Origin: Natrialbaceae archaeon AArc-T1-2
GTDB taxonomy: Archaea; Halobacteriota; Halobacteria; Halobacteriales; Natrialbaceae
Reading direction: 5' to 3'
NCBI RefSeq assembly: GCF_030273315.1
Contig: NZ_CP127176.1
Location: forward strand, 1-64,000
Length of the DNA: 64,000 nucleotides
The translations under genes were made by a program, and so were the position numbers. The stretch's first letter is position 1; each line of letters opens with the position of its first letter. The notes under the pieces were generated by a model, which saw only the letters and a list, made by a program, of their open reading frames with translations, ran no database searches and was not told where the DNA came from. This document shows, one piece after another, positions 10,194 through 31,479 of this stretch.

Positions 10194-11300
10194 TCAACCC
10201 AGAAGGTTGGCGAGTTCGTGGAGATTCTCTTTGAGATTACGCTCGAACTCGGTAGAGACGGTAATGAACTCGCCGTCGTCGCTGTGTTCCTTGTACTTTC
10301 CCAACGATAGAGCGAGCTCCCCACTCGGAGTTGCAACGAGCTTGAAAATAACTGAAGTGCTCTGCAATCCGGTTTCGAGCCACGCCTTTTCGATATCTGC
10401 CCATTCGCCAGCGGAGGTATCTGCTGAATCAACCTCGTAAGCCAAGCTGTGAACCTTACCCCGATTCCGAGAGTGTCCAATCTGAACCGGAGCGAGAACG
10501 TGTTCAGTACCGCGGATCTGCTTCCCGAGCTGAAGCATCGTCCGCCCGTCAGGCGTCTCGGTGAGTTTGAACCACTTCTGGTACGGGTCATACGAGGCAC
10601 TCAACCACCAGAATCCGAGGTCGTTCCAGTCCGATTGGCCTCCCTGATCGAACTTCCCGTACTCCCATGCTCGACGAAGACCCTCGCTGTGTTCAGCTAG
10701 ATATTCTCGTGGGAGGACGACGTCTATCGAGGGATTGGCTGGCTTTGGTTGTCGTAGCCAGTGGATGACGCCGTGATACCCGTCGCTGAAGTCGTGTTGG
10801 ACCGCGTGAGGCCAGGTCGGAAGAATGCCAGAGAGATCGACGTTGAATCCGGAGAAGTCCGCTTCTCCCAACCAGAGGACGCTGTACTCTGCAGCGAGAT
10901 ACTCAGCGGTTACATTGTCGACATCCTTATCCTCGTGTTTGTGCTGTACTTCGACGCCGATGCCACGGCCCTCAGGGAACCGAGGCTGTGGAAACTCGAC
11001 GAGAATATCCGCACGCCGGTCACCCAACTGCTGTTCTAGTCCTATTGTGGCGTCAGGATACTCGGTCGTGAGCTTCGAATACGCGATCGACTTCATCCGC
11101 AAATGGAGTGGAGATTCACCGCCACAGTCAGTCTCCTCTTCAGCAGCGTGGTAGAAATGCCGTGCGACGAACGACCCCTTCCGGCGATGGGAATCGCGAA
11201 TTTTCAATTGATCGCCGCACTTCGGGCACTCGAGGAGATGCCCTTTCTGTACCTGATTCGGAATGACCTCGGTATCGTCGTAGAAGGCCAAGAACGGCAT
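10194..11300 (-). CDS. CoiA-like nuclease paralogue in defence operon, 368 aa
   Basis: Third CoiA-like protein, again starting MPF. The N-terminal finger has CPKC followed by ARHFYHAAEEETDCGGESPLH (given here in two parts: ARHFYHAAEE and CGGESPLH), about residues 25-65. The nuclease motifs are GDRRADILVEF (Asp near 94) and GVEVQHKHEDKD (Glu-x-Gln near 117). The C-terminal ~170 residues form an unknown domain rich in aromatic residues, different from the zinc-rich C-termini of the paralogues at 934 and 2203. It lies 22 bp after the FtsK-like gene and 63 bp before the DUF262/DUF1524 gene, so it probably belongs to the same transcript and may be an effector or accessory nuclease. Confidence 0.8.
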   Translation of the reverse strand: MPFLAFYDDTEVIPNQVQKGHLLECPKCGDQLKIRDSHRRKGSFVARHFYHAAEEETDCGGESPLHLRMKSIAYSKLTTEYPDATIGLEQQLGDRRADILVEFPQPRFPEGRGIGVEVQHKHEDKDVDNVTAEYLAAEYSVLWLGEADFSGFNVDLSGILPTWPHAVQHDFSDGYHGVIHWLRQPKPANPSIDVVLPREYLAEHSEGLRRAWEYGKFDQGGQSDWNDLGFWWLSASYDPYQKWFKLTETPDGRTMLQLGKQIRGTEHVLAPVQIGHSRNRGKVHSLAYEVDSADTSAGEWADIEKAWLETGLQSTSVIFKLVATPSGELALSLGKYKEHSDDGEFITVSTEFERNLKENLHELANLLG

Positions 11301-15891: not shown

Positions 15892-17390
15892 ATTTCCTCC
15901 TCGGGGACAGAGACGATGGTAACGCCGTCCGCGTATTCCTCGGCATATCCAAGACTTGATACTGCTTCTTTGAAGCCCTCGTAGTTCTGGTTGTTCAGCG
16001 GATCACTTTCGGATGCGCTGGCACCGAGGCGGATGTCCCACTCCGTCAGGTGGCTACGATCCTGTTCAGTTCCGCCCACGATGATCCCGTACCGTTCCCG
16101 GAGTTCTTCTGAGAGATCTTGGAGAGACATGCTCGTGCCTGGTTCGATTACGGAGAGTAGGATGGGTTCCAGCATCTCAGGGTCGGGCCGATACCTACGT
16201 TTGTTCGCCCGGTTCCCTCGTGGTTTAAGGATCCCGGCACGCCAGGCGAAGGTCTGGGCTGTGGACTGCGGTGTGTACGTGTCGAACCGATTCGAGAAGT
16301 CGTGGATGACGTTGCTGACAGCATCCACTAGCCTATGAAAGGTGGTATTCTTCTTGGGGTCTCGTGAGGCTCGGAATACCTGCTCGAATTTTTCGTAGTC
16401 CTGCTCAATCTTGTCCTCCTTATTCCGGTTCAGTTCCAGGAAATTATGGTTCTCGATCTCTCGGAGGACGTCTTCCTCGCTGTAGTCTTTGTAGCCCTGC
16501 AGGTCAAGGACGTGCTTGACGCCAAGCCGGGTGGCTAACTGGATCTCCGACCCGACGACGCGGAATGATTCGAGGCTGGCGTCGGCTACCGGGTTGTTCC
16601 TGGTCCCGGTGTAGTTCAGCACGATTGGGACAGGTTCGTCTTTACCCCCGTCATCCCGAATCTCATTGTGCCGGTTGGCCATGAAGACGTAGAGCAGGAA
16701 CCCGCCGAATTTGATGGTGCGGCGAAGGTCACGAGCGTAGTTCAGGTCGTAGTCGCTGTTGGAGTCCTTCAGGTGCTTCGACAGGGTTTCGAAGCCTTCG
16801 ACGAACTCATCCGCAATCTTCCCGTCCCCGAATGCGTCTCCGAGGACAGGTTCTTCCCAGGGTGAGACCGTGACGTTGCCTTTCTCTCCGTCTTTGGCGA
16901 GTGGCCGGAAAAGGAGAGAGATAGCGTCGTGGTGATCCTGAAGTTGGTCGGTCAGCTTCTGATTGATGTCGCTGTCAGATCTGTCCAGTACTGTGTAGAT
17001 GAACTGGGATGGTGTTACACCGATTCGGCGGTAGGCGACGAACCAGTTGCTCATAGAAGTCATTGCAGAGTGTTGTGGACTACTTGCGTAGAGGGCGTTG
17101 TCGTTGTCCAAGACCTTCCGCATCCTGTTCCGAAGATTGTCCATTTGTTCGTCACTGAGATCGCGGGAAGACTCGAACAGGCCGTGGTATTTCTCGTCCA
17201 AGTCGCTGGAGGGGGTTTTCCCGGGTTTCTCGACAAATTTGAACAGGTCCTCCGACTGGTGAGTGGATCCCAGGACGTTACTGAAGACGACCTGAGAGAG
17301 ATGCACCGGTTTTAGGGAGGCGGAGGTTGCTTTGAATCCGAATGCGGCTTCCGATGCATCAGAGTTTACATCGTTGAGTCTCATTGGCAT
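15888..17390 (-). CDS. Unknown protein of DUF4338/ATPase/FtsK defence cluster, 500 aa
   Basis: Third gene of the minus-strand cluster. I recognise no catalytic motif. The C-terminal ~100 residues (RRYRPDPEMLEPILLSVIEP onward) look like a winged-helix or PglZ/DptG-like accessory tail, with an ELRERYGIIVGG segment. The central part has conserved-looking hydrophobic helices (IKFGGFLLYVFMANRH). A strong Shine-Dalgarno-like GGAGGTGA precedes the ATG at 17390, and its stop overlaps the next ATG. Its fixed place between a P-loop ATPase and an FtsK-type motor suggests a structural subunit of the same complex, analogous in position to DptG. Function is inferred from context only. Confidence 0.72.
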   Translation of the reverse strand: MPMRLNDVNSDASEAAFGFKATSASLKPVHLSQVVFSNVLGSTHQSEDLFKFVEKPGKTPSSDLDEKYHGLFESSRDLSDEQMDNLRNRMRKVLDNDNALYASSPQHSAMTSMSNWFVAYRRIGVTPSQFIYTVLDRSDSDINQKLTDQLQDHHDAISLLFRPLAKDGEKGNVTVSPWEEPVLGDAFGDGKIADEFVEGFETLSKHLKDSNSDYDLNYARDLRRTIKFGGFLLYVFMANRHNEIRDDGGKDEPVPIVLNYTGTRNNPVADASLESFRVVGSEIQLATRLGVKHVLDLQGYKDYSEEDVLREIENHNFLELNRNKEDKIEQDYEKFEQVFRASRDPKKNTTFHRLVDAVSNVIHDFSNRFDTYTPQSTAQTFAWRAGILKPRGNRANKRRYRPDPEMLEPILLSVIEPGTSMSLQDLSEELRERYGIIVGGTEQDRSHLTEWDIRLGASASESDPLNNQNYEGFKEAVSSLGYAEEYADGVTIVSVPEEEI

Positions 17391-17396
17391 CGGTGT

Positions 17397-18956
17397 TCAC
17401 CTCCGCTCCATCTGGTACCGATCATCGTTGACTGACAGGATCTCGAGTTCGCCGGTTTCCGTGTCCATAATGTGGATGGTGCCGTAGTCCTCATCGTGGC
17501 TTTCCCTGTATTCGATTTCCTCCATAAACTCTAGCAACTGCTGTTCTTCCTCCCTGCCACGTAGAATGTAAGGAATATTGCCTTCCAAAGCACCGAGTGT
17601 CTCGGATAGATCTGGATCGATCCGGAGTCTGACTGATGAGTCTCGGCCTTCGTATTCGAGGACGTGGTGGTCGTGATTGTAGTCCATTGCATCGCTGATT
17701 TCGGGATGGAGCTGCGGGACTCGGCGATTCAACTCGCGTTTAGGGATTTCTGTCCGGGAAATAAGGGATAGGGAGCTTTTAGATCGATAGTTGTGGGAGA
17801 GCCAGACTCGGAGATCGGAACCTTTGGAAGAATCCGGCATGAAATAGCTGTTAATCATCTCTATGACGTCCTCTTTCACGCTTTCGTCCGAACGGTCCCT
17901 GTTCCGCTGGTTATGGAAGGAGTAGTTGGTCTCGTGATAGAGGTCGCGAGCGTCGTAGTCGTTGATGGCTACGTCCTCAAAGTAGAACTGACGTTTCTTC
18001 TCGATGAATCGCTGGTCGACTTCTTCTTCTGAGTCGTCTTCGTCTCTTCGTGAAACCTCTTCTTCAGCGTCTGCCCAGAGTTTGCTGTCGATGAATGGAT
18101 GGGTGAGATCGCGGGGATGGAAGTATTCGTTCAGGAGGGTGAAGATCTGCCCACTGCCACTGAACGCGAGGTTGTAGTATTTCAGATCTTCGTCAAAGTC
18201 GGTGACGCTCTCTTCTTTGGCTCCGGTGATACAATAGGCGAGAAAGTTCAGGAGGTCACGGACGGTGACGTGGGCGTCCAGATGACCGACGGACTGTAGG
18301 AGTCGGATGATATTTTCTCGGACACGATCATTCCTCATCTTGTCCATGTTATAGGCGATGTGTCCGTGGATGTCGTCGCCGTTGTTCTCTTTCAGGAACT
18401 TGTTCGAGGTCAAGTTCTCGATGGCCTGGCCGATGACCTTGCGCGTGAGGATGTTCCTGTTATTGAGGTCGATGACGACGATAGAGTCGAAGTCAGCGTT
18501 GTCGGCTTGTCCTTCGCCGTAGATGATCTGATTCTGGAACTGGCTTCGAACGTTTTCCAAGAAGGGATAGTCGTCGGCGTGCTGGGTGGTCATCTCGTAA
18601 AGAGGGCCGTCGTTGATAGCGAGGATACCAGGTCGGCCGTCGTCAAGGGCGTCTTTCCATTTGTCGAGTAGGACAGTGTAGTCGTCGTACTCGGAGGCAT
18701 CAGAGAGATAGAAATAGTTCGGCTCCGGGTACTCGGGCTTCATCTGCAGGATGTACTGTGTTTTCCCGTCTCCAGGGTTCCCGGTGAGAACGACCTGCTT
18801 CCCGTCTTTCAGTGCGTCTTGTAGGTATTCCTCACCGTCCAAGCGGGTTGTTATATGTATCTCTCTGCGTTGCTCGTCGGTGAGCTGTTCAGCGAACCCT
18901 CCCTGTGCCAGCTGTGAAAGGAATCGTAGATTCAGTGTCGATGCTTCAATTCCCAT
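17397..18956 (-). CDS. P-loop ATPase of defence cluster (DptF-like), 519 aa
   Basis: AAA/STAND-like ATPase. Walker A GNPGDGKTQYIL lies at about residues 57-68, LAINDGPLYEM near 110, and DSIVVIDLNNRNIL is a Walker B-like strand near 160. The rest is helical and acidic. The combination of a short N-terminal arm, a GxxGDGKT P-loop and the LAIN-G-L motif resembles DptF, the ATPase of phosphorothioate-dependent restriction, and related defence ATPases. It is second in the operon, 39 bp after the DUF4338 gene and 6 bp before the 500-aa gene. The predicted role is an ATP-dependent switch or loader for the FtsK/nuclease partner. DptF kinship is plausible but unverified. Confidence 0.78.
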   Translation of the reverse strand: MGIEASTLNLRFLSQLAQGGFAEQLTDEQRREIHITTRLDGEEYLQDALKDGKQVVLTGNPGDGKTQYILQMKPEYPEPNYFYLSDASEYDDYTVLLDKWKDALDDGRPGILAINDGPLYEMTTQHADDYPFLENVRSQFQNQIIYGEGQADNADFDSIVVIDLNNRNILTRKVIGQAIENLTSNKFLKENNGDDIHGHIAYNMDKMRNDRVRENIIRLLQSVGHLDAHVTVRDLLNFLAYCITGAKEESVTDFDEDLKYYNLAFSGSGQIFTLLNEYFHPRDLTHPFIDSKLWADAEEEVSRRDEDDSEEEVDQRFIEKKRQFYFEDVAINDYDARDLYHETNYSFHNQRNRDRSDESVKEDVIEMINSYFMPDSSKGSDLRVWLSHNYRSKSSLSLISRTEIPKRELNRRVPQLHPEISDAMDYNHDHHVLEYEGRDSSVRLRIDPDLSETLGALEGNIPYILRGREEEQQLLEFMEEIEYRESHDEDYGTIHIMDTETGELEILSVNDDRYQMERR

Positions 18957-18995: not shown

Positions 18996-21113
18996 TTAAC
19001 TGTTGCTTATAATGAACTCACTGAGACTGGCTTGTCGTTTGTCGAAATCGATCTCGCTGCTCAATTTGAATTCTTGCTTGTCAAATCCCCTAATATTCTC
19101 CAAGACATCTTGTTTCTGAACTCTCATGCTTGCCCACCGATCGATCCAGTACTGGTAGATTGACTCCTGTTCTTTCTGTGGGTCGTCGAACTCCCAGTAG
19201 TATTCTGGGTTGTCGTCGATTCCAAGCAGGTAGTCTTGGGAGTTCTCCGCCAGATCGATTCCGTACACAATCCGCCTGGACTCGTGTTTCAATAGGTCAG
19301 TCTCTAAACCGCAGTTCGTCAGACCGCGCCGGATTTTCCGGATTCGAGGAGAGACACCTTCTCCGAACCGACCTCTGACGACCTTGCGACCCTCCTCTAA
19401 CTGTGTGACTTGGCTAAGCCGTTTCCGTGTCTCGGGGCCGAACTGGATTGAACCGTAGCCTTCAGTGTACCCGATCTGGTTGTATTCGATTTGTCCGTTT
19501 TTGTTTGGAACCCGGATACGGTCGTACTGGGCACTTCCGATCTCGAACAGGCCGGTGGTGTCGAGGAAAACCAGTTCGTTCGGTTTACTCACTGCTTCGC
19601 CTTTCATCGAACTGGCGATTTCGCTCTGATAGTCGCCGTACTTGTCTTGGTACATGTTAATGACCTTGGGACCGGTCAACGCCATCGCCACGAGTTTCCC
19701 ACCGAGGATACGGTTGTAGGGAGGGATAGCGCCGCAAACCATAATGTTCATCATGCCGGCCCCGACCCTCTCCTTCTTGATCTCCTTCAGGGCGGTTTTG
19801 ATGGCTCGCCGTCCAGAGTCGTTGTTCAAACCGGTTCTGATGAACTCGACATCGTCTTCGTCGCTGTGTTCTTGGAAGTATTTCCGGTCACGGAGAAGTT
19901 TTTGAAGCGCCCGAGCCCGTTTTTTCCGGAACAGGGCTGTCTCACTTTTTCTCTCCCAGTCTTCCATCTTCTCAGGGTTCTCGTCCTCGCCTCCTTCGAT
20001 CGTCTGTTCAGCTTCCTCTTCTATCTCCTCGAGTATCTCGAGAACTCGTTCATCCGGGTTGACGAAGCTTTCATCGGAGAGTTCTAGATGTTCCTCGGCG
20101 AAGTCGTCATACCGGATGTTGGATATCGCGTTCTCGATGGAGTTCTCCAGAGCCTCTCGTATATCAGAGCAAAACTCGTTGATCCGCTCTTCATACTCTT
20201 CCTCAGTTTCTAGCCATTCCGTGTTGGTGACTGACCGAGTCTTCTTGTCAGGCGTCTGCTTCTCCTCTGGTAGTTGTTCCTCGTATTCATGGACCCGTTT
20301 CTTCCGCTGCAGTTTATTTTCGACTGCGTCGATCGTCCAGCCGATGTGGTTATCCCTGACTGACAAGTTCATCATAGGGCTTGCTATCGTCGCAATCCCC
20401 ATCACTGGATCTTTCGGCTTAGCTCCATTTCTAATAAGGAAATTGATGTTTCTTCCGGGGACCGTATTGTATGGTGTCAACCAAGTATAGCGGAAGTACC
20501 GCCAGATATCCATCAAATCCAACTCGGTGTGTTCGCACTTCTTCCCTCTCTCTACTTTCTGTATGTAGGGTTGAACAACACTTTCTAGATCTTCGGCTAT
20601 TGTATCTTGACTCTGATCCTGAAGTGGGGCTAAGTCCTGGTAGAGTTCTTTCCCACCAGTTATTAGTTCAAGGACGCTTCGCCCGCCATTGGTGTTTCGA
20701 CGGGTGTCACGCTCCATTTTCCGAACGAACTCACGGACGCTTTCCTCTCTGAATTGCGCCCGTCGTTCCTTTTGGAGGATAGTTCTCTCTTGTTCTTTGA
20801 ATTGCTCTGGGTCGTCCTTGTAGCGATCCGGGTCTGGACGAACGACGTGTAATTCGGAGTTTTTTCGGATGTCATAGTTGATCTCAATGAGGTCCAGAAG
20901 AACTTCTAACGCTGCGAGATATCGAATCTGGCCTTCAGTTATCCCATCCTCAATTTCGCTCTCAATATAGCGAATCTCGTCTTTGATGGCAACCTCCCGG
21001 TCGAGATCTTCCTGAAATTCGATCAGTTCATCAGTGAGAGCCTCAAATCGCCGTTGGTACTGGCCTGGGAGATCGGGCGAAAAATCCACTTCTCGTTCAG
21101 AATTCGCACCCAT
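18996..21113 (-). CDS. DUF4338 (DruA-like) protein, 705 aa
   Basis: First gene of the minus arm of the defence island. Residues about 205-270 and 470-650 match the DUF4338 pattern known from Druantia DruA: YTWLTPYNTVPGRNINFLIR, MGIATIASPMMNLSVRDNHIGW, then PYNRILGGKLVAMALTGPKV and QYDRIRVP. The central region is a charged insert, rich in Glu and Lys. The start is the ATG at 21113 (MGANSERE); a TTG start at 21152 is less likely. The biochemical role of DruA is not settled; a DNA-binding or nuclease-like role has been suggested. Here it heads a cluster that otherwise resembles DptF/G/H or PbeABCD, and it diverges from an operon with a DruE-like helicase. Confidence 0.82.
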   Translation of the reverse strand: MGANSEREVDFSPDLPGQYQRRFEALTDELIEFQEDLDREVAIKDEIRYIESEIEDGITEGQIRYLAALEVLLDLIEINYDIRKNSELHVVRPDPDRYKDDPEQFKEQERTILQKERRAQFREESVREFVRKMERDTRRNTNGGRSVLELITGGKELYQDLAPLQDQSQDTIAEDLESVVQPYIQKVERGKKCEHTELDLMDIWRYFRYTWLTPYNTVPGRNINFLIRNGAKPKDPVMGIATIASPMMNLSVRDNHIGWTIDAVENKLQRKKRVHEYEEQLPEEKQTPDKKTRSVTNTEWLETEEEYEERINEFCSDIREALENSIENAISNIRYDDFAEEHLELSDESFVNPDERVLEILEEIEEEAEQTIEGGEDENPEKMEDWERKSETALFRKKRARALQKLLRDRKYFQEHSDEDDVEFIRTGLNNDSGRRAIKTALKEIKKERVGAGMMNIMVCGAIPPYNRILGGKLVAMALTGPKVINMYQDKYGDYQSEIASSMKGEAVSKPNELVFLDTTGLFEIGSAQYDRIRVPNKNGQIEYNQIGYTEGYGSIQFGPETRKRLSQVTQLEEGRKVVRGRFGEGVSPRIRKIRRGLTNCGLETDLLKHESRRIVYGIDLAENSQDYLLGIDDNPEYYWEFDDPQKEQESIYQYWIDRWASMRVQKQDVLENIRGFDKQEFKLSSEIDFDKRQASLSEFIISNS

Positions 21114-21335
21114 AGTAATTTGGTTAACGTAGCAAATCGTTGTCTGCTGCAATTCAAAAGAGTATCGACTCGACTCAGGTCAGACCCCTAGACGGTCTAG
21201 CAAAACGAGCCATAATTATTTGATATATAATATGTGCGCATTTATTCAATAGGTTTAAATTATGTGTCGCTCAGGATTGATAACATATGAGTAAGGGAAC
21301 TATCAGGAATAGAATTGGCGGCCTTCAGATCACCC
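21114..21335. promoter_or_regulatory. Divergent promoter region of the defence island
   Basis: A 222-bp AT-rich spacer between the two arms, with TTTGATATATAATATG and GGTTTAAATTATG on the plus strand. The TTTAAAT box lies about 30 bases before an ATG at 21287 that opens an 18-codon frame ending TAA at 21341-21343. That stop overlaps the GTG at 21336, which I take as the start of the next gene. This could be a coupled leader peptide or a chance frame. A shared control region for both arms is inferred. Confidence 0.5.
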
Positions 21336-22790
21336 GTGAGTAAACTTTCTATCCCTTTCGGGCTTGATCCAGGGGGTACAAAAACTCCGATCGAAGAGGC
21401 ACAACGGAAAACAGACTACTATCGATGCCCAGAATGTGGTGAGTTCCTAACCCCTCGGATTGGCTCTCAACGCCAGTATTTCGCTCACAAGCAAGGCGTC
21501 CTGGAGGACATTTCCTGTTCACTCTCCAGTGACGAGGGTGTCGAAAAGATGATCCAGGATCTCCGTACTTCGGACATCGAAGAGGATGAACGTCAGCGGT
21601 CAATTCGAACCTATCTCGGTCAACGATATGATGGCGGAATCGAATTATTTGGCATCGTTCCTTCACTCGATTGGGACCAAATCCAAGAAGATGAGGACGT
21701 AGACACGCTCTTAGAAAAGGTCGAAATCGAGGCAGAGGGAATTACACATCCACCTGTACCCAGTAACTTCCACCCATCGGAGGCAGAGGTCACGCTTGAT
21801 CTCGATCCAACAGCAAACAGTTACGAACTCCAAATCACAGGTCCAGATGCCCTCGGAAGTATCACCGGCACTTGGACTACTTCAGGGCTCCAACACGGTA
21901 ATCTCTTTGTTGGTGATGAAACTCGGGCGCAACGATATAACTCGGATCACCAGGTGCGCAAAGATATGTGGGTATATTTGGTCTCAAAGAATCCCCCAAA
22001 ATCCGAAGTGTCGTTCGTTGATGTCTACGACTTCGCGGATGTATCCTTAGTCGGGTTCCGGGCATCCGAAAAGACGGAGCCTTTTCTCGACCGCTATGGG
22101 GGAGGCCTTAGTACAGAAAACTACGGCTTCGATGCTGACGTTGTATTACCCGCACACACAAACCCAACCGTTGAGGCACCCCTATACGCACCACCAGAGG
22201 AACCAGTTCTCGTCGGAGTTACTCCCTCCGAGGAAGTCGACCCAATATTCGAGGTCGTTTCCATCCCCAAAGATGCAAACGAGACAGTCGAAATCGACCG
22301 GACTGGAGCGGGAAATCCTCGTTACTACACAACTGAGGTACCTTCTGATGGATCGCGCCGTGTGAGTATCCACCAGCGGAACTCCGATCGGCATCGTCTG
22401 ATCCACCTCCACCCATCCGAAGAATCGACGATCATAGACGCTACCGAGCCAGAATCACGGCGAATTGGTATTGAAATCCAAGATGAGGAACACCGTGAAT
22501 TTCTCTCACCTATCGAAGGCCCGTCTTCGAAGCGTATGCCCGTTGGTTTCAATCCTCATTTATTACATACCAACCTCGAATATGTCGGGCCAGAAGACCT
22601 CGAACTGGAAGTAATCGCTACATTTGCTGAAGGCGCATCGCTCGGTCCGACAATCAGCCGAGACGTAACAGCAATCAGTGACATTATCTCGGAGGTCGTC
22701 CACTGGGTAGAGAGCGGCTGTAATGAACTCGAGATCCGGTTCAATGGTATTGGAACTATATCGATCTGCTTTCCGCAGGGGGAACAATGA
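21336..22790 (+). CDS. Zinc-finger protein with CoiA-like N-terminus, 484 aa
   Basis: First gene of the plus arm. Near residues 27-58 it has YRCPECGEFLTPRIG followed by QYFAHKQG, the same Cys-x-x-Cys ... Phe-x-His finger that opens CoiA proteins, and then a further Cys (ISCSLS). No Asp...Glu-x-Gln nuclease core follows, so this is not a complete CoiA. The rest is beta-rich and acidic, with no recognised domain. The start is uncertain: GTG at 21336 is chosen because it sits next to the TATA-like spacing and after a short leader frame; a TTG at 21315 is possible. It overlaps the next gene by ATGA. A targeting or adaptor role for the helicase/nuclease pair downstream is plausible. Confidence 0.72.
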   Translation: MSKLSIPFGLDPGGTKTPIEEAQRKTDYYRCPECGEFLTPRIGSQRQYFAHKQGVLEDISCSLSSDEGVEKMIQDLRTSDIEEDERQRSIRTYLGQRYDGGIELFGIVPSLDWDQIQEDEDVDTLLEKVEIEAEGITHPPVPSNFHPSEAEVTLDLDPTANSYELQITGPDALGSITGTWTTSGLQHGNLFVGDETRAQRYNSDHQVRKDMWVYLVSKNPPKSEVSFVDVYDFADVSLVGFRASEKTEPFLDRYGGGLSTENYGFDADVVLPAHTNPTVEAPLYAPPEEPVLVGVTPSEEVDPIFEVVSIPKDANETVEIDRTGAGNPRYYTTEVPSDGSRRVSIHQRNSDRHRLIHLHPSEESTIIDATEPESRRIGIEIQDEEHREFLSPIEGPSSKRMPVGFNPHLLHTNLEYVGPEDLELEVIATFAEGASLGPTISRDVTAISDIISEVVHWVESGCNELEIRFNGIGTISICFPQGEQ

Positions 22791-24613
22791 GTCTGGAACC
22801 CGGTGACGAGTTTACAGCGGAAGTAGACAAGATTACGAAACGGAGAACTTGCACCGTCAAATACGATGGGGAAGGGATTAATATCGGCCCAGTCACGTGC
22901 GAACCCGGTCGTTCGGTTCGATTGCGGTATCTCGGGGCAGATTCAGTCGCTGGAACATCGATACATTTCGCACTTTGTCTGACCGAGGAAGTTCTCGCGG
23001 ACGATTACAAAGATCACATTCGACGCCATGTAAGCGGCCTTCTTCCTGACCAACCTCCACAAGAGGGAGAACAAACCTACATAGAGGTGGATAAGATCGA
23101 CGAGTACGGCCTCGGACTCGCAGTTGCCGGAGGTGAAGTCGTCGAACTCGGACCAGTACAAGCAGACGAGGGCGACTTAGTACACGTTGTCGGACGCGAA
23201 CCGGGATATGCAGAGATTCTGAACGCAAGAGCACGTGGGAAACGCTACAGGATTCGCTTCAATATTCTCCGTGAGCGCTGGGACAAACTCCCTATCAAAA
23301 AGGGCGAGTCATTCACGGCAACGATAGATGACACTGATGGCAATAATCTCATCGCGTATGTGGACGGGTTGCCTGTCCACTTCTCTGGAGGCAAAGCCCG
23401 AATCGGACAAAAAATCGAAGGGAAACTCATTAGATTTCACCGAGACCGCGGAGTTGGCAAAGTGACAAAGGTCTATGATTCGGTTGGTGATATCGAAGAC
23501 CACGGGCACGATACTCGGATGCAGCAACTTCAGCAAGCGGGATTCGGCCAAGAACCGTTTCGTGCATTTGCTACGCAGTTTACTGGCGTGAGTGGTGACC
23601 AACTACCATCGACTGAGATCGGTATCCGAGACGCCATAGTCGGTGAGGCAATCCGACTCGGTCTTGCTGAGAAAGCTGAATCGGGTGGCCAACAGTATCC
23701 ACAAGCACACATCACCGCAATCCGCCACTGGGTTGTCCATAAGCTGGCAGCTGTTCTCGGACAGCCAGTCACTGGTGCCGACGAAGTATCCGATGATGTC
23801 GGGTGGTTTCGGGCAGCATTAACAGAGCGTACCGGCCCCACAATCACGTTCCTCGGTGATGTGATCCAACTCTCACAAGGGTACTATGCTCCAGCACCGA
23901 CGCGATCTGTAATGATCTCCGAATCTGAGGCCGTGCTCGTTTCAGGGGATCCAAGTCGTCCATTCATAGAGTCCGGTCTTGATATCGAATTTCGGGGGTT
24001 GACGCGGATTCTTACTGACACCAGTGAAGCAGAATTGCGTTCGAGAGAAATCCCCGTTCAATCTAAAGACGAATACATCGGTCTGGACGAGGCGCCGATT
24101 ACGACGCCAGCCACACTACGTGAGTACATCGAACAGCGACCGCAGGAGTCGTGGGAACCGGAGGAAGATTGGGCACCATACACTGGACAGTACTATGGAT
24201 TTACCGTAGACGGTGAGCCGCTCGTCATTGAAGAGGCAGACGGAACTGCGATCAGCTTGTGGCGAGTTCCAGTCGAATACGGCGCCGATACCTACCAGTT
24301 AAAGGTTCAATCGGGCGACGACAAAACAAGGGCCGTCACTGTTTCGCCGAAATACCGCAAGCATGCGTGCCTAATCCTTGACTCAATGGCTGAAGACCCA
24401 CAGACAGTTGAACTCACCGCATATGACGAGGAGGTCTTATTAAGTTGTGACTTTGCACCGCCGCGGGCACAGATGCGTTGGCTGTACGCAGTCGGAGCAG
24501 AGTGGCTTGAAACATCGTCGTATCAACTTCAATGGCGAATTTCGGACACCGATGCTGATTCAGTGCGAGAGGTCTTCGACGAACTGCCCGTGACCATCAT
24601 CGATAATACATAA
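22787..24613 (+). CDS. Protein with three N-terminal OB/TRAM-like domains, 608 aa
   Basis: The N-terminal ~235 residues contain three similar beta-barrel repeats of 60-75 residues, each starting with a strand such as EFTAEVDKI, TYIEVDKID or SFTATIDDT and holding a G-x-V/R core; they look like OB or TRAM folds, which bind nucleic acid. A middle region (about residues 330-390) has TGPTITFLGDVIQLSQGYY followed by APAPTRSV, a Pro-Ala-Pro-x-Arg motif. The C-terminal third is beta-rich. The gene overlaps its predecessor by ATGA and ends one base before the helicase ATG, so it is co-translated with the helicase. It is likely a DNA-binding subunit that hands substrate to the helicase. I do not recognise a named family. 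Confidence 0.75.
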   Translation: MSLEPGDEFTAEVDKITKRRTCTVKYDGEGINIGPVTCEPGRSVRLRYLGADSVAGTSIHFALCLTEEVLADDYKDHIRRHVSGLLPDQPPQEGEQTYIEVDKIDEYGLGLAVAGGEVVELGPVQADEGDLVHVVGREPGYAEILNARARGKRYRIRFNILRERWDKLPIKKGESFTATIDDTDGNNLIAYVDGLPVHFSGGKARIGQKIEGKLIRFHRDRGVGKVTKVYDSVGDIEDHGHDTRMQQLQQAGFGQEPFRAFATQFTGVSGDQLPSTEIGIRDAIVGEAIRLGLAEKAESGGQQYPQAHITAIRHWVVHKLAAVLGQPVTGADEVSDDVGWFRAALTERTGPTITFLGDVIQLSQGYYAPAPTRSVMISESEAVLVSGDPSRPFIESGLDIEFRGLTRILTDTSEAELRSREIPVQSKDEYIGLDEAPITTPATLREYIEQRPQESWEPEEDWAPYTGQYYGFTVDGEPLVIEEADGTAISLWRVPVEYGADTYQLKVQSGDDKTRAVTVSPKYRKHACLILDSMAEDPQTVELTAYDEEVLLSCDFAPPRAQMRWLYAVGAEWLETSSYQLQWRISDTDADSVREVFDELPVTIIDNT

Positions 24614-24614
24614 T

Positions 24615-27600
24615 ATGAAATCAATCAAAGAAGTCTCGGAAGAGCTCGAGAACGATCTTCAACAGTACATCGAATCACGTTACCACCTCCATCACCCGCG
24701 GCTTCTCAAGGAACGTCGTGCCCTGATGGACGAGGGAGAGACAGCCACCGAACCATGGGTCGAGGCAACACCGACCTATGTTTCGGGTGAACCCCTCAGA
24801 GAATTGGGCCTGCCGAGCGAAGTTGTCGATTTGTTAAAAGATCTCGAAAGCGACGATCTCAACATCTTCGATCCGCCGTACAAACATCAGGCCGACGCCC
24901 TCCAATCGTTCTTCAACGAAGAGGACGATCTCATCGTATCCACCGGAACAGGGTCCGGAAAAACCGAGATTTTCCTCTACTCAATTCTGGGTCAGCTCGC
25001 CCAAGAGGCAGCGCGAGGAGAGACAGCTGACCAACGTGGGATACGGACATTAGTTCTCTATCCGATGAACGCCCTCGTCGCGGATCAACTCTCCCGGATG
25101 CGCCTACTCTTTGGTGACAAGGACGGGGCAGATACACTTGAGGACTACATGGGCCGGCGTGTACAGTTCGGGATGTACACGAGTCGTACACCCTATCACG
25201 GGGAGTACGACAAGAGTAAGAACGATAATCTGGTCAAGCCGGTCATCAATCGGTATCTCAAGTTAGAGGAAGAACAGCCGGACCTCTACGAACAACTCAA
25301 AGAAAAAGGCCGTATTCCAGCCAAGGATCTCGAAGGGTTCCGGAACAAGAATAAGAAAAAGGAGACTCACTTCCGTACTCAACCTGGCGACACCGAACTG
25401 TTCACGCGTCAGGAGATGCACACCCGCGATGGAAGCAATCCCCATGGCGGGACGCCGGATCTCCTGATCACGAACTATTCAATGCTGGAGTATATGCTAC
25501 TCCGGCCGATCGAACAACCCCTCTTTGAGGATACCCGTGAATGGCTGGCCGAGGACGAAGAGAACGAGCTGAATATCGTCCTTGACGAAGCTCACCTCTA
25601 CCGAGGCGCCCAAGGAGCAGAGGTGGCGCTCCTGTTGAGCCGCTTGCTCCAGAAACTCGGGATATCTCGCGAACGTGTGCGCTTCATTCTCACGAGTGCG
25701 ACGATGGGTGAAAACGTAGAGGAAGCAGCCCCAGACTTTGCGGCCCAGCTCACAACCGGAGATCCGGACGATTTCTCAGTAATCACCGGTGAGCAGGTGG
25801 AGTACGAAGGCGGAGAACCGAGCGAGAAACGCATGGCGCAACTCCTAGAGCGAATTGGCTACCAACTCGATGATCCATCGAAGATTCGCAACGTTGCGAG
25901 CGAACGAGGCTGGGATCCTCTTGAAAGTGATGACGTAGAATCGATCCGTTCGTACCTTGCTGACCAGTTAGTCGATGACCCACTCTTCAGGTTAGCACAC
26001 GAACACCTTCGTGAAGAGCCACTGCGCCTATCGGCGCTTGCCGAAGAGTTGTTCGAGGACATCGATCAGGATCTGGCTCGTGAGGCGACGGGCAATCTTC
26101 TGTATCTTTGTACCGAGGCCCGCCAGGGAGAGGACCAGGCGTTGCTTCCGACGCGCCTGCATATGTTCCTCAAAGGGCTCCCCGCCCAGTATGCGTGTGT
26201 CAATCCTGAATGCAGCGGCCGCCGGGTTACAGAGGGAGAGAACCTCCTCGGGCGCATCTACAGTAATCCGCACACGACCTGTGAGTCCTGTGGCAGTCGT
26301 GTCTTCGAACTGATTAGCCACCGCACCTGTGGAGCAGCATATCTGCGCGCGTATCGACGCTCTGACGACGACCGCGGGCCGACGTTCCTGTGGTCAGATC
26401 CTGAGAGCAGCGAGGACTTGGACGAACTTCATCTCTTAGTTGAGGAACCTCGGGATGACCCAAATCCAGACCACGAACACGGCCGTTCGCTCGCCGAGAC
26501 GACGACCTCACGAAACCTCTCGATTGCCTCCGGCCATCTTGTTGATGATCGGCACGTGGACGACGAAGGGGCGACCACTCATATCGAGGTTCAGGTCCCG
26601 ACTAAAGAGCCGCCGAACGAGGACGGTGCGTGGAGTTGGACTCAATGTCCGGCGTGCGGGATCAAAGAGCGACGCCGTCCGAATGGCGACACGAAGGTCG
26701 AAGATCTGGTCACCAAAGGTGAGGAGCCATTCGCGCACAGCGTCCGCTCGATGTTCGGTATCCAGCCGACCGACCCACTCAAAGAGGAGTTCCCCAACGA
26801 GGGGCGCAAGGTATTGTGCTTCTCTGACGGTCGACAGAAGGCGGCCCGCTTAGCTCGCGATCTCCAATCGAACGTTGAATCCGACTCGTTCCGCGAGGTT
26901 CTAACCGACATTTTTGGATCCGCGGACGGTGAAATCACGATGGATCGGTTGTTCGCCGAGTTCGCAGTCTACTGTGCGAAAAACAACATCGTATTCTTCG
27001 ACGACAGCGACCAATACACGAATCAGTCGGGCGTCGTGTATAAGGGTTCACGCTCCCACTTCGAAGATATTCGTGGGAACCTGTCCGACATTGTCGATGA
27101 GTACTACCTTGAGTCCATCGACGATATTCCGGAGGTGCCAGCCGCACGCAATGCGTTGTCGGAGCGTCCCCGCCAGTATGAGGAACTTCTCCTCCGATCG
27201 TTGGGCGATGAACAGTACTCCATCACCGGCGCTCTCGTCGGGTACATTGCGCCGTCCGAGGAGGTATTTGAGAAAATCGATGAAGCCGTCCCTGAAATTG
27301 AGACAGACCAACTCAAGAGCATCCTCATCGAGGCGCTTCGTCATGCCTGCGAGGAACGGGCATTTGATTCAAATATTGAAGCCAGACGACGTTCGAACTC
27401 CTATCCCTATCAAAATTGGATTGACCCGGACGATACAGGGCTCCCCCACAGCGAAATAATCCCTGAATATGTTGTAGAATCACTCGACGACGAAGTGCCA
27501 GAAGAGGCGTGGTATAGTCTGAGACGGGCGTTGATGACGACAGAGCCTGTGTTGTTTGGGGCCTCCCACGGCAATTACTTCGTCAATCCGAAAGCAACGA

Positions 27601-30038
27601 CAATCGATCTCCGACTCGACGACGATTGGTACCGATGCGAAGGATGTCGCCGGTTCTCGGTCGTGTCACTCAATGATTCGTGTCCCTACGATGGGTGTCG
27701 CGGAACTCTCAGTCCGGTTAGTGACAATGACATCCATCTCCAGGCACGGAAGAACTTCCTTCGGAACCCGCCACGCGAAGTGCTCCATGGCGAACGGGAC
27801 CCGCTCACGCTGCGTTCAGAAGAGCACTCTGCACAACTGAGTGCAAAGGACAACTCCGAGGCATTCGCACGCTCCGAAGAGTATGAACTCCTCTTCCAGG
27901 ACATCCTCGTCGGGGACTCCGAGGCCGATCAGCCGATCGACGTGTTAAGCTGTACGACTACTATGGAAGTCGGGATTGACATCGGGAGCCTCACTGGCGT
28001 GGCCATGCGGACGGTCCCGCCAGGACCAGAGAATTATGAGCAACGTGCTGGTCGGGCAGGACGTCGCGGAGCCGGCCTCTCGACGATCGTCACCTTCGCG
28101 GACAACTCCCCTCACGAGTCACACTACTTCGAGAATCCTGAAGAGATGATCACGAGCGAGGGTAACGCACCGGTCATCTACGCCGGCAACGAAAAGATCG
28201 CCCGACGGCACATCAACGCCTCGCTGCTTGCTCGGTTCTTCGATCCATCGGCCGTCGAGACGGAAGCTGCCGTATTCCGCTCGCTCAAAGGTACAGCCGA
28301 GTTCTTTGAAGGAGAAGGCGACCAAACCCTCGCCGCGTTCGAAGACTGGCTGGACGAAGAGATCTTCGCCGATTCGTCGTCGACGCTCGAGCAATTGGGT
28401 GCCCTCCTTCCGGATGCACTAGGAGGGGGACGTTCATCCGACTGGGAGGTCGCATTAGTCCGCGACGCCGCTACAGAGTTCCTGAGCGAACTTCAGGAGC
28501 TAGAAGCCAAGACAGAATGGGAAGAGCAATCCACGGAGGACGACGATTTACTTTCCGTCCTTCTGGATGCAGCCCTACTTCCGACGTTCTCGTTCCCAAC
28601 TGATGTGGCCGATTTCGTCGTGCGCGAAAATGAGCCCGGGTCGTCACAGCCGAAGAACAAGTACCAGATGTCTCGGGATCTGAAACAGGCACTCTCAACG
28701 TACGTTCCAGGCCGAGAAATCGTCGTTGACAAGAAGACCTACGAGTCCTACGGTGTCTATGTCAAATTCCCAGACAACCCGAAGAACCGAGTATCTGGCG
28801 AAGACTGGGGAGACCTCGATTGGTTGAACTGGTGTGATGTCTGTAAGACGGTCTTTGACGAGCATGATGAGAGTCTCGCAGCCAGGGATATGGAGTGTCC
28901 TGTCTGTGAGGGAGCGACCGTCAGTTCCCTTCAAATGTACACCCCGGAGGCATTTGCACCGAAAGTCGATGAGACAGGTGCAGCTGAGAAAGGATCAGAC
29001 TACAACGAGAACCGAGCCTACGCGACACAGCCGAAATACCCGCTGACGTCGACTTCTCACGAGAGTGAGAACGCTAGCGAGATGGCAGAGGAGAAATCTA
29101 TTGGCCATTCGATAGTGGGGAAGATGAATGACGAACAGCTTCTTGTCGCTAACTTTGGGGCTGATGAGGATGGATTCGAGGTCTGCACCGATTGTGGGGC
29201 CGTTAGCCGCGAAGGCCCGCTCTCGAACCCACACGCCCGTCCATACCCCAAGGATCTCCGATTTGTTGGGGAATATGACTGGGATGACCAGTGTACCGGC
29301 TCAACAGTCACGACGAGTTTCAGCCACCGCTTCCCCAGTGATTTGACCGTCCTCCAAATCCCGTTAGGTGATGAGATGGAGTTCGTTCCATCCGAAGCAT
29401 GGTTCGAGACACCAGGGCAGTCGTTAGCTGAAGCATTAGTCATGGGTGCATCTCGTGCGCTGGGTATCGAAGATGACGAACTCGAAGGTGGGTTCCGTAC
29501 TCGTTCGGCAGAGCACGCCGACATCGACGCACGGGGCGTTATCGAGGTCTTCCTCTTCGACACAACCGCCGGCGGTGCTGGCTTCTCATCGCGTGTCTGG
29601 GAGGAATTCGACGCCGTGTGTGCGGAAGCCCGTTCAATCCTCGAGAGCTGCTCATGCGATACGGCGTGTCACAACTGCCTGCGCCGGTATCAGAACCGTC
29701 ATCTCCACGACTCGTTGAATCGCCACGAAGGCCTGGCCTTGCTCGATTACGCACAGGCGGGAACGCCGCCAACGCTTCGTCCTGAAAAGACACAGAGCCT
29801 GATAAAGCAACTCGAACGTGCCTTGGAGTTGAAGGAAGAAGACGTTGCACTCAGGGCGATTAACGACCATAAATGGGAGATCAAGATTGACGGGACGACG
29901 ATGACATTTGGTATTCGTTCTAGTCTGCGGCGTTCACGTGCCCCGACGTCGGCGACGTACGACGAGGACTACTCAGACTACGAGTTGTCCCAACGGTTGC
30001 CAGAGGTGGCTCACTCGATCGTCGACCAACTCCAATAG
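24615..30038 (+). CDS. DEAD/DEAH-box helicase with DUF1998 domain (DruE/DISARM-like), 1807 aa
   Basis: Superfamily 2 helicase. Walker A STGTGSGKTEIF is at about residues 109-120, DEAH (VLDEAHLYRGAQ) near 322, and motif III TSATMG near 360. The C-terminal helicase motifs are VLCFSDGRQKAARL near 732, TTTMEVGIDIG and the QRAGRAGRRG box near 1110-1140. A zinc-binding insert (CVNPEC ... CESCG ... CGAAY) lies near 528-575, and CPAC near 680. The C-terminal DUF1998 region holds FLFDTTAGGAGFS and a four-Cys cluster CSCDTACHNC near 1640-1685. Length and plan match DruE of Druantia and related DUF1998 helicases of defence systems. It lies 5 bp before a RecB-like nuclease. All helicase motifs are intact. 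The predicted role is an ATP-driven DNA translocase acting on invading DNA. Confidence 0.92.
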   Translation: MKSIKEVSEELENDLQQYIESRYHLHHPRLLKERRALMDEGETATEPWVEATPTYVSGEPLRELGLPSEVVDLLKDLESDDLNIFDPPYKHQADALQSFFNEEDDLIVSTGTGSGKTEIFLYSILGQLAQEAARGETADQRGIRTLVLYPMNALVADQLSRMRLLFGDKDGADTLEDYMGRRVQFGMYTSRTPYHGEYDKSKNDNLVKPVINRYLKLEEEQPDLYEQLKEKGRIPAKDLEGFRNKNKKKETHFRTQPGDTELFTRQEMHTRDGSNPHGGTPDLLITNYSMLEYMLLRPIEQPLFEDTREWLAEDEENELNIVLDEAHLYRGAQGAEVALLLSRLLQKLGISRERVRFILTSATMGENVEEAAPDFAAQLTTGDPDDFSVITGEQVEYEGGEPSEKRMAQLLERIGYQLDDPSKIRNVASERGWDPLESDDVESIRSYLADQLVDDPLFRLAHEHLREEPLRLSALAEELFEDIDQDLAREATGNLLYLCTEARQGEDQALLPTRLHMFLKGLPAQYACVNPECSGRRVTEGENLLGRIYSNPHTTCESCGSRVFELISHRTCGAAYLRAYRRSDDDRGPTFLWSDPESSEDLDELHLLVEEPRDDPNPDHEHGRSLAETTTSRNLSIASGHLVDDRHVDDEGATTHIEVQVPTKEPPNEDGAWSWTQCPACGIKERRRPNGDTKVEDLVTKGEEPFAHSVRSMFGIQPTDPLKEEFPNEGRKVLCFSDGRQKAARLARDLQSNVESDSFREVLTDIFGSADGEITMDRLFAEFAVYCAKNNIVFFDDSDQYTNQSGVVYKGSRSHFEDIRGNLSDIVDEYYLESIDDIPEVPAARNALSERPRQYEELLLRSLGDEQYSITGALVGYIAPSEEVFEKIDEAVPEIETDQLKSILIEALRHACEERAFDSNIEARRRSNSYPYQNWIDPDDTGLPHSEIIPEYVVESLDDEVPEEAWYSLRRALMTTEPVLFGASHGNYFVNPKATTIDLRLDDDWYRCEGCRRFSVVSLNDSCPYDGCRGTLSPVSDNDIHLQARKNFLRNPPREVLHGERDPLTLRSEEHSAQLSAKDNSEAFARSEEYELLFQDILVGDSEADQPIDVLSCTTTMEVGIDIGSLTGVAMRTVPPGPENYEQRAGRAGRRGAGLSTIVTFADNSPHESHYFENPEEMITSEGNAPVIYAGNEKIARRHINASLLARFFDPSAVETEAAVFRSLKGTAEFFEGEGDQTLAAFEDWLDEEIFADSSSTLEQLGALLPDALGGGRSSDWEVALVRDAATEFLSELQELEAKTEWEEQSTEDDDLLSVLLDAALLPTFSFPTDVADFVVRENEPGSSQPKNKYQMSRDLKQALSTYVPGREIVVDKKTYESYGVYVKFPDNPKNRVSGEDWGDLDWLNWCDVCKTVFDEHDESLAARDMECPVCEGATVSSLQMYTPEAFAPKVDETGAAEKGSDYNENRAYATQPKYPLTSTSHESENASEMAEEKSIGHSIVGKMNDEQLLVANFGADEDGFEVCTDCGAVSREGPLSNPHARPYPKDLRFVGEYDWDDQCTGSTVTTSFSHRFPSDLTVLQIPLGDEMEFVPSEAWFETPGQSLAEALVMGASRALGIEDDELEGGFRTRSAEHADIDARGVIEVFLFDTTAGGAGFSSRVWEEFDAVCAEARSILESCSCDTACHNCLRRYQNRHLHDSLNRHEGLALLDYAQAGTPPTLRPEKTQSLIKQLERALELKEEDVALRAINDHKWEIKIDGTTMTFGIRSSLRRSRAPTSATYDEDYSDYELSQRLPEVAHSIVDQLQ

Positions 30039-30042
30039 CCGC

Positions 30043-30906
30043 ATGGATGGGTCAGAACAGTTTGCGCACGTAAACTGGTCGGCGTCGGCAGCACAGCTGT
30101 TCGAAGAGTGCCCCCGGCGGTTCTTTTATCGATACCAACATACCGAGTCTACCGAGGACTATAGTGAGGATACACCGTCGCCAGGGGCCTATCTGGGAAC
30201 TGTCGTACACGAATCTCTCGCGGGGCAGGTTGCACGATGGGCTCGGGGTGAGAACATCCATCTCCAGACTGCAACCGATTATGCGAAAGACGAACTTGAG
30301 AGATATGTCGAAGCGAATACTGAGACGATTGCAGATCGGATTGACGATACGGATGGGAAAGCCTTCGATAGCGATTCCTTCACGCGGTCATTAGTTCGTA
30401 CAGCCCGAAATCACATCAGGCAGTTCTTCCGGGTGATTTGGCCCCATCTTGAGGACCACCGCTATATCGCCCACGAAACGCGCCAAACGTTCGAAGTTTC
30501 CGAAGAACCCGTCACCGTCCAACCAGATCTCTGTACTCGAAACCCAGAGGGAGACTTTGTCGTTACTGACTGGAAGACAGGTTCGTATGACCGGTTCAGT
30601 AACCCGACAATACAGATGCAAGCATATGCGCTCTATGCTCACGAAGCGTATGAACCCGAACTCAGTCGGATTCGGATCCAATTAGCCCATACTGGAAGTG
30701 GGGAGTTCGACCGAATGGTGCCGACCACGGAAGACATGAGACAGATCCGAGACCGGATTACGAATGATAGGGCCTTCTGGACAAGTAAGGGAGACATCGA
30801 ATCCTACAAGACAAATCCAGCGGTCCAGAAGTGTAGCCAATGTTCGTACCTTCACCGGTGTACAGATGGACAAAACGTCACGGGTGAAGAGCCAGAACCA
30901 AACTAA
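30043..30906 (+). CDS. RecB/Cas4-like PD-(D/E)XK nuclease with Cys cluster, 287 aa
   Basis: Exonuclease-type protein of the RecB/AddB/Cas4 superfamily. SASAAQLFEECPRRFFYRY is the N-terminal helix with the first Cys, LGTVVHESL supplies the His, QPDLCTRNPEGDF gives an Asp near 159, VVTDWKTG gives Asp176 and Lys178, and QMQAYALYA is the Q-x-x-x-Y motif. The C-terminal CSQCSYLHRC provides three Cys that, with the N-terminal one, could hold a 4Fe-4S cluster. The start is the ATG at 30043, 4 bases after the helicase stop; a longer frame upstream overlaps the helicase end and lacks similarity. It is the last gene of the plus arm. It probably degrades DNA unwound by the neighbouring helicase. Confidence 0.88.
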   Translation: MDGSEQFAHVNWSASAAQLFEECPRRFFYRYQHTESTEDYSEDTPSPGAYLGTVVHESLAGQVARWARGENIHLQTATDYAKDELERYVEANTETIADRIDDTDGKAFDSDSFTRSLVRTARNHIRQFFRVIWPHLEDHRYIAHETRQTFEVSEEPVTVQPDLCTRNPEGDFVVTDWKTGSYDRFSNPTIQMQAYALYAHEAYEPELSRIRIQLAHTGSGEFDRMVPTTEDMRQIRDRITNDRAFWTSKGDIESYKTNPAVQKCSQCSYLHRCTDGQNVTGEEPEPN

Positions 30907-30978: not shown

Positions 30979-31479
30979 TCAATCACGCAATTGATAAATC
31001 CACTTGCGACGAACAAAATCGTCAACTGAGGACCGGCCTTCGCGCGACTGCCAACTATCACCTTGGGCGTTCTCTTCCCGAGCTAGCTTGAAACCCGCCG
31101 CGGAATAAATCGTCCCCTTGTTACCTGCTACTCCAGCGTGAGCAGAGATCCGTTGATACCCCTCTAAGAACGCCCACTTTCGGGCGCAAGCGATAAGCCA
31201 CGAACCCGTGTTTGATGGTCTTTCAGGTCGCGATCCGAACCGCGTAATTGAGATTTCTTTATTTTCATCGACCATTCGAGCCACAGGTCGGCCGAGAACA
31301 CAGACTGCAATTAGATTAGACTCATAACGAGCTCCGAAAGCAGCTTTCCATCCAGGGATACCTCCCAATTTGTGGTCTACCATATCCGACTCGAGGAAAT
31401 CGTTGATCTCATTTCGGCTTCGCTCTCGGGTTAGTTTGAGATTCGATACAGAGTCAGGTACTGATATTGGATCTTTCAT
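30979..31479 (-). CDS. GNAT-like (XF1762/Mom-type) protein, 166 aa
   Basis: Small GNAT-superfamily-like protein. The pattern GWKAAFGARYESNLIAVCVL / GRPVARMVDENKEISITRFG / GSWLIACARKWAFLEGYQRI / GVAGNKGTIYSAAGFKL follows phage and plasmid XF1762-like acetyltransferases, to which the Mom DNA-modification proteins are related. It is convergent with the plus arm of the defence island (72-bp gap) and transcribed toward it. If Mom-like, it could modify DNA bases; if an ordinary GNAT, it could acetylate a protein or metabolite. I cannot tell these apart by eye. No partner (such as Com) is visible. Confidence 0.65.
   Translation of the reverse strand: MKDPISVPDSVSNLKLTRERSRNEINDFLESDMVDHKLGGIPGWKAAFGARYESNLIAVCVLGRPVARMVDENKEISITRFGSRPERPSNTGSWLIACARKWAFLEGYQRISAHAGVAGNKGTIYSAAGFKLAREENAQGDSWQSREGRSSVDDFVRRKWIYQLRD

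What the first reader, a model, noticed from the sequence alone, without database searches (positions are those of the whole stretch)
22787..30906. Triple OB/TRAM protein coupled to a DUF1998 helicase and a RecB-like nuclease
The 608-aa protein has three tandem N-terminal beta-barrel repeats that look nucleic-acid binding, plus a conserved-looking PAPTR motif, and its gene abuts the helicase, which is itself 4 bases from a Cas4-like nuclease. The order loader, helicase, nuclease resembles a RecBCD/AddAB-like machine built from unrelated parts.
Basis: inference. Interest (0 to 1): 0.65.

Follow-up and report, generated by a model that had tools for sequence, protein, structure and literature searches.

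The report
Archaeal Druantia variant with own nuclease
The three genes are part of an eight-gene defence cluster of salt-loving archaea, a variant of the known anti-virus system Druantia that lacks one standard part, carries its own DNA-cutting enzyme and sits joined to a second defence module.

Summary
In detail: the 608-aa gene lies 1 base from a 1807-aa helicase gene, which lies 4 bases from a RecB/Cas4-like nuclease gene; the first 240 residues of the 608-aa protein are predicted as three five-stranded barrels, the third TRAM-like. But this is not an unknown machine. The helicase is DruE (PADLOC DruE1, 1569 bits), the 608-aa protein is DruD with a barrel extension, the gene before it is DruB, and DruA lies divergently beside them: a type I Druantia without DruC. 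The unit is larger than the finding. DruA-DndF/SspF-G-H-like and DruB-DruD-DruE-RecB stay together in 10 of 10 haloarchaeal loci (about four lineages) in two gene arrangements. DruA-FGH also occurs without DruE in 2 of 391 haloarchaeal genomes and beside bacterial DruBCDE in two unrelated lineages. The DruE tail lacks nuclease-like residues, while the RecB-like protein keeps its catalytic and Fe-S type motifs in 10 of 10. Most likely it is an anti-virus/anti-plasmid system in which DruE unwinds and the separate RecB-like nuclease cuts. The RecBCD/AddAB analogy is reasonable as function, wrong as kinship, and untested. New variant of a known kind.

The parts
11323..15891 (-). DndH/SspH-like protein, 1522 aa: C-terminal FtsK/HerA translocase; candidate restriction-nuclease motif D955..E973xK975
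   Evidence: PADLOC SspH 1.6e-67 over 1175-1518; Pfam FtsK_SpoIIIE 1.1e-32; D955, E973, K975 invariant in 13 sequences incl. Neobacillus and Bryobacter. That they are the nuclease site is inferred from the pattern.
15888..17390 (-). DndG/SspG-like protein, 500 aa
   Evidence: PADLOC SspG 2.5e-12
17397..18956 (-). DndF/SspF-like protein, 519 aa
   Evidence: PADLOC SspF 2.2e-15, DndF 7e-7
18996..21113 (-). DruA, long form, 705 aa from the ATG (718 aa from an upstream TTG, 18996-21152)
   Evidence: PADLOC DruA1 6.2e-148; Pfam DruA 5e-34; several orthologues are 704-705 aa
21315..22790 (+). DruB with a CoiA-like zinc finger, 491 aa
   Evidence: hhalign with a 60-locus bacterial DruB alignment: 98.2%, E 3.2e-14 over residues 29-271; Pfam CoiA_N 2.3e-5, below its cut-off; C38, C41, F56, H58 invariant in 28 sequences
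22787..24613 (+). DruD, 608 aa: three OB/TRAM-like barrels (residues about 1-235) followed by the DruD core (278-601) with the G-Y-W-x-P-A-P-x-R motif
   Evidence: hhalign with bacterial DruD: 99.1%, E 8.9e-19; PADLOC DruD1 7e-6; model and fold searches
24615..30038 (+). DruE, YprA-family SF2 helicase with zinc-binding DUF1998-type domain, 1807 aa
   Evidence: PADLOC DruE1 E=0, 1568.8 bits, residues 2-1806; Walker A GTGSGKT 111, DEAH 324, RAGRAGR 1144
30043..30906 (+). RecB/Cas4-type PD-(D/E)XK nuclease with four-cysteine (Fe-S type) pattern, 287 aa
   Evidence: Pfam PDDEXK_1 1.8e-23; N-terminal C, H, PD, DWK, Q..YA and CxxCxxLxxC kept in the alignment of 10 orthologues
30979..31479 (-). Associated small gene, 166 aa (called XF1762 family protein in L033); possible accessory or passenger
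   Evidence: found in 8 of 10 haloarchaeal loci plus a fragment in a ninth, on varying strand and side

Best explanation
It is a haloarchaeal, often plasmid-borne anti-invader system: a type I Druantia variant that has no DruC and has (i) a separate RecB/Cas4-type nuclease next to DruE, (ii) in 9 of 10 members a triple OB/TRAM extension on DruD, and (iii) a long DruA joined to a DndFGH/SspFGH-like restriction triad. Shown: gene identities, conservation, motifs. Inferred: DruE loads on single-stranded or 3'-tailed DNA arising in an infecting genome and translocates; DruD, which is next to DruE in nearly all Druantia I loci seen, is its core partner and in this clade uses its barrels to hold single strands; because the tail of DruE shows no nuclease residues, the RecB-like protein supplies the cutting, so DruD-DruE-RecB acts as a processive helicase-nuclease; DruB contributes a zinc-finger recognition surface; DruA-FGH is a second, separable restriction module that samples and nicks the same DNA and may supply entry sites.
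For: DruE1 and DruA1 at full strength; DruB and DruD by profile-profile comparison. All eight genes in 10 of 10 haloarchaeal loci, in two arrangements: divergent in 8, convergent in 2, so the set survives rearrangement. RecB-like motifs kept in 10 of 10, while the DruE tail lacks the acidic/His pattern seen in the related helicase of G244 (by eye), in line with Bell et al. 2025 (PMC12458937, section 8 read), who predict inactive Vsr domains in type I DruE. Separate nucleases follow DruE elsewhere too: PDDEXK_1/DruK-like in L062, L064, L076, L107 (4 of the 5 candidates scanned, among 77 bacterial loci) and NERD-helicase type proteins in L048 and L049 (only L049 was scanned). Type III DruE is reported to load on 3' ssDNA and to act as helicase-nuclease, with RecD/RecBCD dependence (PMC13192584, abstract, introduction and passages). 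DruA-FGH lies beside DruBCDE in Neobacillus and Bryobacter.
Against: No activity, complex or phenotype was tested. Seven of the ten loci are near-identical recent transfers (DruE 95-98% identical), so the conservation rests on about four lineages. The barrels are absent from Natribaculum, so they cannot be essential to the mechanism. The RecB-like protein may be an accessory rather than the effector, since most bacterial type I loci showed no recognised one. DruA-FGH might be an independent neighbour carried along, as it also occurs without DruE in G026 and G385.
Confidence: 0.6

Rival explanations
1. Two independent defence systems, a DruC-less Druantia (DruBDE-RecB) and a standalone DruA-DndFGH system, merely travel together in haloarchaea without functional coupling.
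For: DruA-FGH occurs without DruE in G026 and, in two broken copies, in G385: 2 of the 11 FGH-positive among 391 genomes. Rakesh et al. 2024 (PMC10853773, sections 20 and 21 read) argue DndFGH works standalone and note GNAT domains called DUF4338 fused to DndF. PADLOC counts DruA as a type I part, but my DruA profile hit in only 22 of 77 bacterial loci (flanks of at most 10 kb in most).
Against: No haloarchaeal DruE1 locus lacks DruA-FGH (0 of 10), across two gene arrangements; separate co-location in Neobacillus and Bryobacter.
Confidence: 0.4
2. The nuclease is a DNA-repair or plasmid-maintenance enzyme and the trio is a repair helicase-nuclease (an archaeal substitute for RecBCD/AddAB), not a defence system.
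For: Barrels, helicase and RecB-like nuclease in one operon; the YprA/MrfA structures, found by sequence, belong to a repair helicase (recalled).
Against: Sporadic presence (9 of 391 haloarchaeal genomes with the full-length family), plasmid location and near-identical copies across families, neighbours such as Hachiman HamAB and GmrSD in the window, and full-length match to the defence-specific DruE1 model.
Confidence: 0.07
3. The barrel extension is not for DNA but binds RNA or proteins, for instance R-loops or a trigger protein, making DruD the infection sensor.
For: Best matches of the barrels are S1/TRAM-type domains of proteins that act on RNA.
Against: Fold similarity does not decide the ligand; the partner is a DNA helicase family.
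Confidence: 0.25

Closest known systems
Druantia type I (DruABCDE; e.g. Pseudomonas putida pKF715A, L030)
   Same: DruA, DruB, DruD, DruE; DruD directly before DruE
   Different: no DruC in any of the 10 haloarchaeal loci; DruD extended by about 240 residues in 9 of 10; separate RecB-like nuclease; DruA is the long form and on its own strand with FGH genes
DndFGH / SspFGH restriction triad
   Same: F-, G- and H-like proteins in one operon, with FtsK/HerA domain and a candidate nuclease motif
   Different: preceded by DruA; no DndC-type modification gene found in the 13 genomes searched; sits with DruBDE
DruK-carrying Druantia (PADLOC DruK models) and the loci L062, L064, L076, L107
   Same: PD-(D/E)XK nuclease immediately after a DruE-like helicase; hhalign of the two nuclease sets 97.4%, E 1.3e-11
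   Different: different companion genes; DruE of another clade
RecBCD / AddAB
   Same: helicase plus RecB-type nuclease with Fe-S type cysteines, as a working analogy
   Different: SF2 YprA-family helicase instead of SF1; nuclease a separate protein; no homologous third subunit

Membership tests
Druantia type I | DruE1 helicase | tested here: met
   PDLC00013, 1568.8 bits, residues 2-1806
Druantia type I | DruA (DUF4338) | tested here: met
   DruA1 6.2e-148
Druantia type I | DruB | tested here: met
   hhalign 98.2% with bacterial DruB over the N-terminal half; PADLOC DruB1 itself gave no hit
Druantia type I | DruD | tested here: met
   hhalign 99.1%; PADLOC DruD1 7e-6
Druantia type I | DruC | tested here: not met
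   no bacterial-DruC profile hit in ORFs of the 10 loci (best 5.5 bits); in the whole genome only coiled-coil level hits of 24.6 bits or less, none on the window's contig C3
DndFGH / SspFGH | F, G and H genes together | tested here: met
   SspF-, SspG-, SspH-like in one operon in 10 of 10 loci; the SspH match covers the C-terminal part only
DndFGH / SspFGH | phosphorothioate modification genes (DndC family) | tested here: not met
   TIGR03183 in 0 of 13 genomes at E 1e-3; other modification enzymes not tested; Rakesh 2024 report FGH without it as common
RecBCD / AddAB | SF1 UvrD-type helicase fused to RecB nuclease | tested here: not met
   DEAD/Helicase_C SF2 helicase, nuclease a separate 287-aa protein
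Cas4 | score above the NCBIfam Cas4 cut-off | tested here: not met
   TIGR00372 27.7 bits against a cut-off of 65
OB/TRAM fold of DruD residues 1-240 | five-stranded barrels matching solved OB/TRAM structures | tested here: inconclusive
   barrel 3 well supported (Z 8-9), barrel 1 supported (pLDDT about 80), barrel 2 low confidence

The most novel reading that the evidence does not exclude
Druantia and DndFGH are one composite machine here: DruA-FGH recognises and nicks invader DNA, and DruB-DruD-DruE enters at the break and unwinds while a dedicated RecB/Cas4-type nuclease degrades the strands, giving archaea, which lack RecBCD (recalled), a self-contained defensive counterpart. DruC, standard in bacteria, is replaced by the barrels and the nuclease.
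Probability: 0.25. Interest if true: 0.75.

Novelty: new variant of a known kind. Interest (0 to 1): 0.55.

Why it matters
The mechanism of type I Druantia and the roles of DruA to DruD are hardly described in the papers I could read. A natural version that does without DruC, spells out the missing nuclease as a separate gene and ties DruA to DndFGH gives direct handles: it predicts that DruD is the core partner of DruE, that the nuclease step is exchangeable, and that DruA belongs to a separable FGH module. It also offers an archaeal test bed in a genetically tractable class.

Tried and rejected
A viral-contig scan with DruE gave nothing. Library searches with the 608-aa protein gave only weak DruD hits (PADLOC) or none (Pfam, NCBIfam), so its identity rests on profile-profile comparison. 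A solved-structure search by sequence with the nuclease gave nothing. The DruB model (pLDDT 74) found no fold match at E 0.001 or better: inconclusive, not evidence of a new fold. SspF, SspG and the RecB-like protein as hidden DruB/C/D were tested and rejected: no hhalign match above 5%. GmrSD and the 368-aa zinc-ribbon protein as core parts were rejected: full-length in only 3 of 10 loci. The idea that the nuclease is a CRISPR Cas4 was rejected on the cut-off; I did not look for CRISPR arrays.

Limits of the counts: bacterial DruB/C/D profiles were built from 60 of the 77 bacterial loci that I had (17 dropped by length and spacing rules), so the hit rates in those loci (DruD 75, DruC 66, DruB 64 of 77) are partly circular. 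The two loci without a DruD hit, L075 and L102, begin just before druE. Flanks were at most 10 kb in genome-contig loci, so absence of FGH there is a lower bound. The nuclease dN/dS (0.23, 0.34) includes about 45 codons before the ATG that overlap druE and is not clean. The root of the DruE tree is weak (0.524).

Full report
Observation. The nuclease starts most likely at the ATG at 30043 (287 aa), as the starts of the orthologues in G128 and G148 suggest. Gaps are 1 and 4 bases, and the preceding 491-aa gene overlaps the 608-aa gene by 4 bases, so four genes look like one operon, 21315-30906.

Identity. PADLOC matches the helicase to DruE1 over its full length with 1568.8 bits, and the divergent 718-aa frame at 18996-21152 to DruA1 at 6.2e-148. 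The 608-aa protein has a weak DruD1 hit at 355-432, the PAPTR region. I collected 84 loci with DruE relatives; 83 had a DruE frame, 77 of them not haloarchaeal. From 60 of these 77 I aligned the three genes before druE. hhalign then gave DruD for residues 278-601 of the 608-aa protein (99.1%, E 8.9e-19) and DruB for the 491-aa protein (98.2%, E 3.2e-14); nothing in the haloarchaeal set that I compared matched DruC. As an independent check, PADLOC names the P. putida genes in those two places DruB1 and DruC1. DruC is absent from the ten haloarchaeal loci and, beyond coiled-coil level hits, from the whole genome. DruB carries invariant C38, C41, F56 and H58 in 28 sequences, the CoiA-like finger that Pfam sees weakly.

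The barrels. The model has three five-stranded units before the DruD core. The third matches structures such as RlmCD and MiaB at Z 8-9 (that these domains are called TRAM is recalled). Barrel 2 is poorly modelled. In 391 haloarchaeal genomes the 240-residue segment occurs in the 9 with full-length DruE1 and, weakly, in one 703-aa protein in G219 without Druantia genes nearby. Natribaculum has a 355-aa DruD without it. So the barrels are a clade-specific addition, under purifying selection (dN/dS 0.07 and 0.16).

The nuclease. All ten orthologues keep the N-terminal cysteine, H, PD, DWK, Q..YA and CxxCxxLxxC. The DruE tail from the last zinc motif on is 123 residues and lacks the D..H and acidic pattern visible in the G244 helicase (by eye), in line with the inactive Vsr domain that Bell et al. 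2025 predict for type I (PMC12458937; abstract, sections 7 and 8 and passages read; supplements not seen). Nuclease genes directly after druE also occur in bacteria: PDDEXK_1 in 4 of the 5 candidates scanned (L062, L064, L076, L107; L112 no hit) and a NERD-helicase protein in L049.

The larger unit. DruA, SspF-, SspG- and SspH-like genes and DruB, DruD, DruE, RecB are all present in 10 of 10 haloarchaeal loci (nine genomes including the window's own, plus the Natribaculum plasmid). Eight are divergent as in the window; G148 and Natribaculum are convergent. Seven share DruE identity above 95%, so about four lineages are independent. G244, the tenth genome, has only a distant DruE relative and none of the other genes within the 20 kb fetched on each side; it is not counted among the ten. 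Named carriers lie on plasmids of Halalkaliarchaeum, Haloplanus and Natribaculum. The G-like gene is in 11 of 391 genomes: the nine, plus G026 (DruA-F-G-H without DruE) and G385 (two broken copies). In Neobacillus (G391) DruB-C-D-E and DruA-F-G-H are side by side; in Bryobacter (G392) a 1290-aa frame with DruA is followed by G and H near DruB-C-D-E (that this frame is a DruA-DndF fusion is my reading of its length and place). These two and the haloarchaea lie apart in the DruE tree, so the association arose or was kept several times. Rakesh et al. 2024 (PMC10853773; sections 20 and 21 and passages read) describe DndFGH as standalone and mention DUF4338 (GNAT) fused to DndF, but the main text has no mention of Druantia. 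In two other loci long DruA sits beside a GHKL-type ATPase gene (L049, L071).

Mechanism. Type III DruE is reported as a 3'-ssDNA-loading helicase-nuclease, and type III defence as sensitive to loss of RecD (PMC13192584; abstract, introduction and passages). Archaea lack RecBCD (recalled). I infer that this variant brings its own RecB-type nuclease. A review notes that a phage factor evades type I Druantia by promoting methylation (PMC12904381, passages); I saw no methylase among the eight genes, so how self DNA is spared is open.

Print status. Searches for Druantia with haloarchaea (0 papers), Druantia/archaea/defense/Halobacteria (1 paper, unrelated by its listing), SspFGH with DruA (3 papers; passages of one read), DUF4338 (3 papers; one read in part) and Druantia/RecB/nuclease/DruK (listing) did not turn up this composite. 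That covers open-licence PMC only.

Verdict. Confirmed observation, partly supported interpretation; a new variant of type I Druantia joined in context with a DruA-DndFGH-like module.

Noticed in passing
window 42751-46244: Complete Hachiman system: HamA 42751-43668 (2.5e-47) and HamB 43668-46244 (1.8e-303).
   Followed up: partly
window 7689-11300: GmrSD-type restriction gene and a 368-aa zinc-ribbon gene continue the DruA-FGH strand; full-length in only 3 of 10 loci, so a separate accessory. The zinc-ribbon protein weakly resembles DruB (13.8 bits).
   Followed up: partly
L062, L064, L076: Unusual bacterial loci: DruD-like, a roughly 700-aa gene (UvrD/GajB-like in L062), DruE and RecB-like nuclease in a row, in L062 preceded by BrxD and a BrxHI-like helicase.
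   Followed up: partly
L049:1289-2905 and L071:10907-12406: GHKL/HSP90-type ATPase genes (weakly MzaB-like) next to long DruA in Druantia loci, perhaps an alternative to FGH.
   Followed up: partly
L160:11007-13118 (G219): 703-aa haloarchaeal protein whose N-terminus resembles the DruD barrels but without Druantia genes in the stretch fetched.
   Followed up: partly
L138-L141 (G385): Two copies of DruA-F-G-H, both with split frames, on one contig with near-identical flanking frames: decaying duplicates or an assembly duplication.
   Followed up: no
window 33572-35017: Protein joining a calcineurin-like phosphoesterase and an RNase-H-like domain, with a PADLOC PDC-S10 hit.
   Followed up: no
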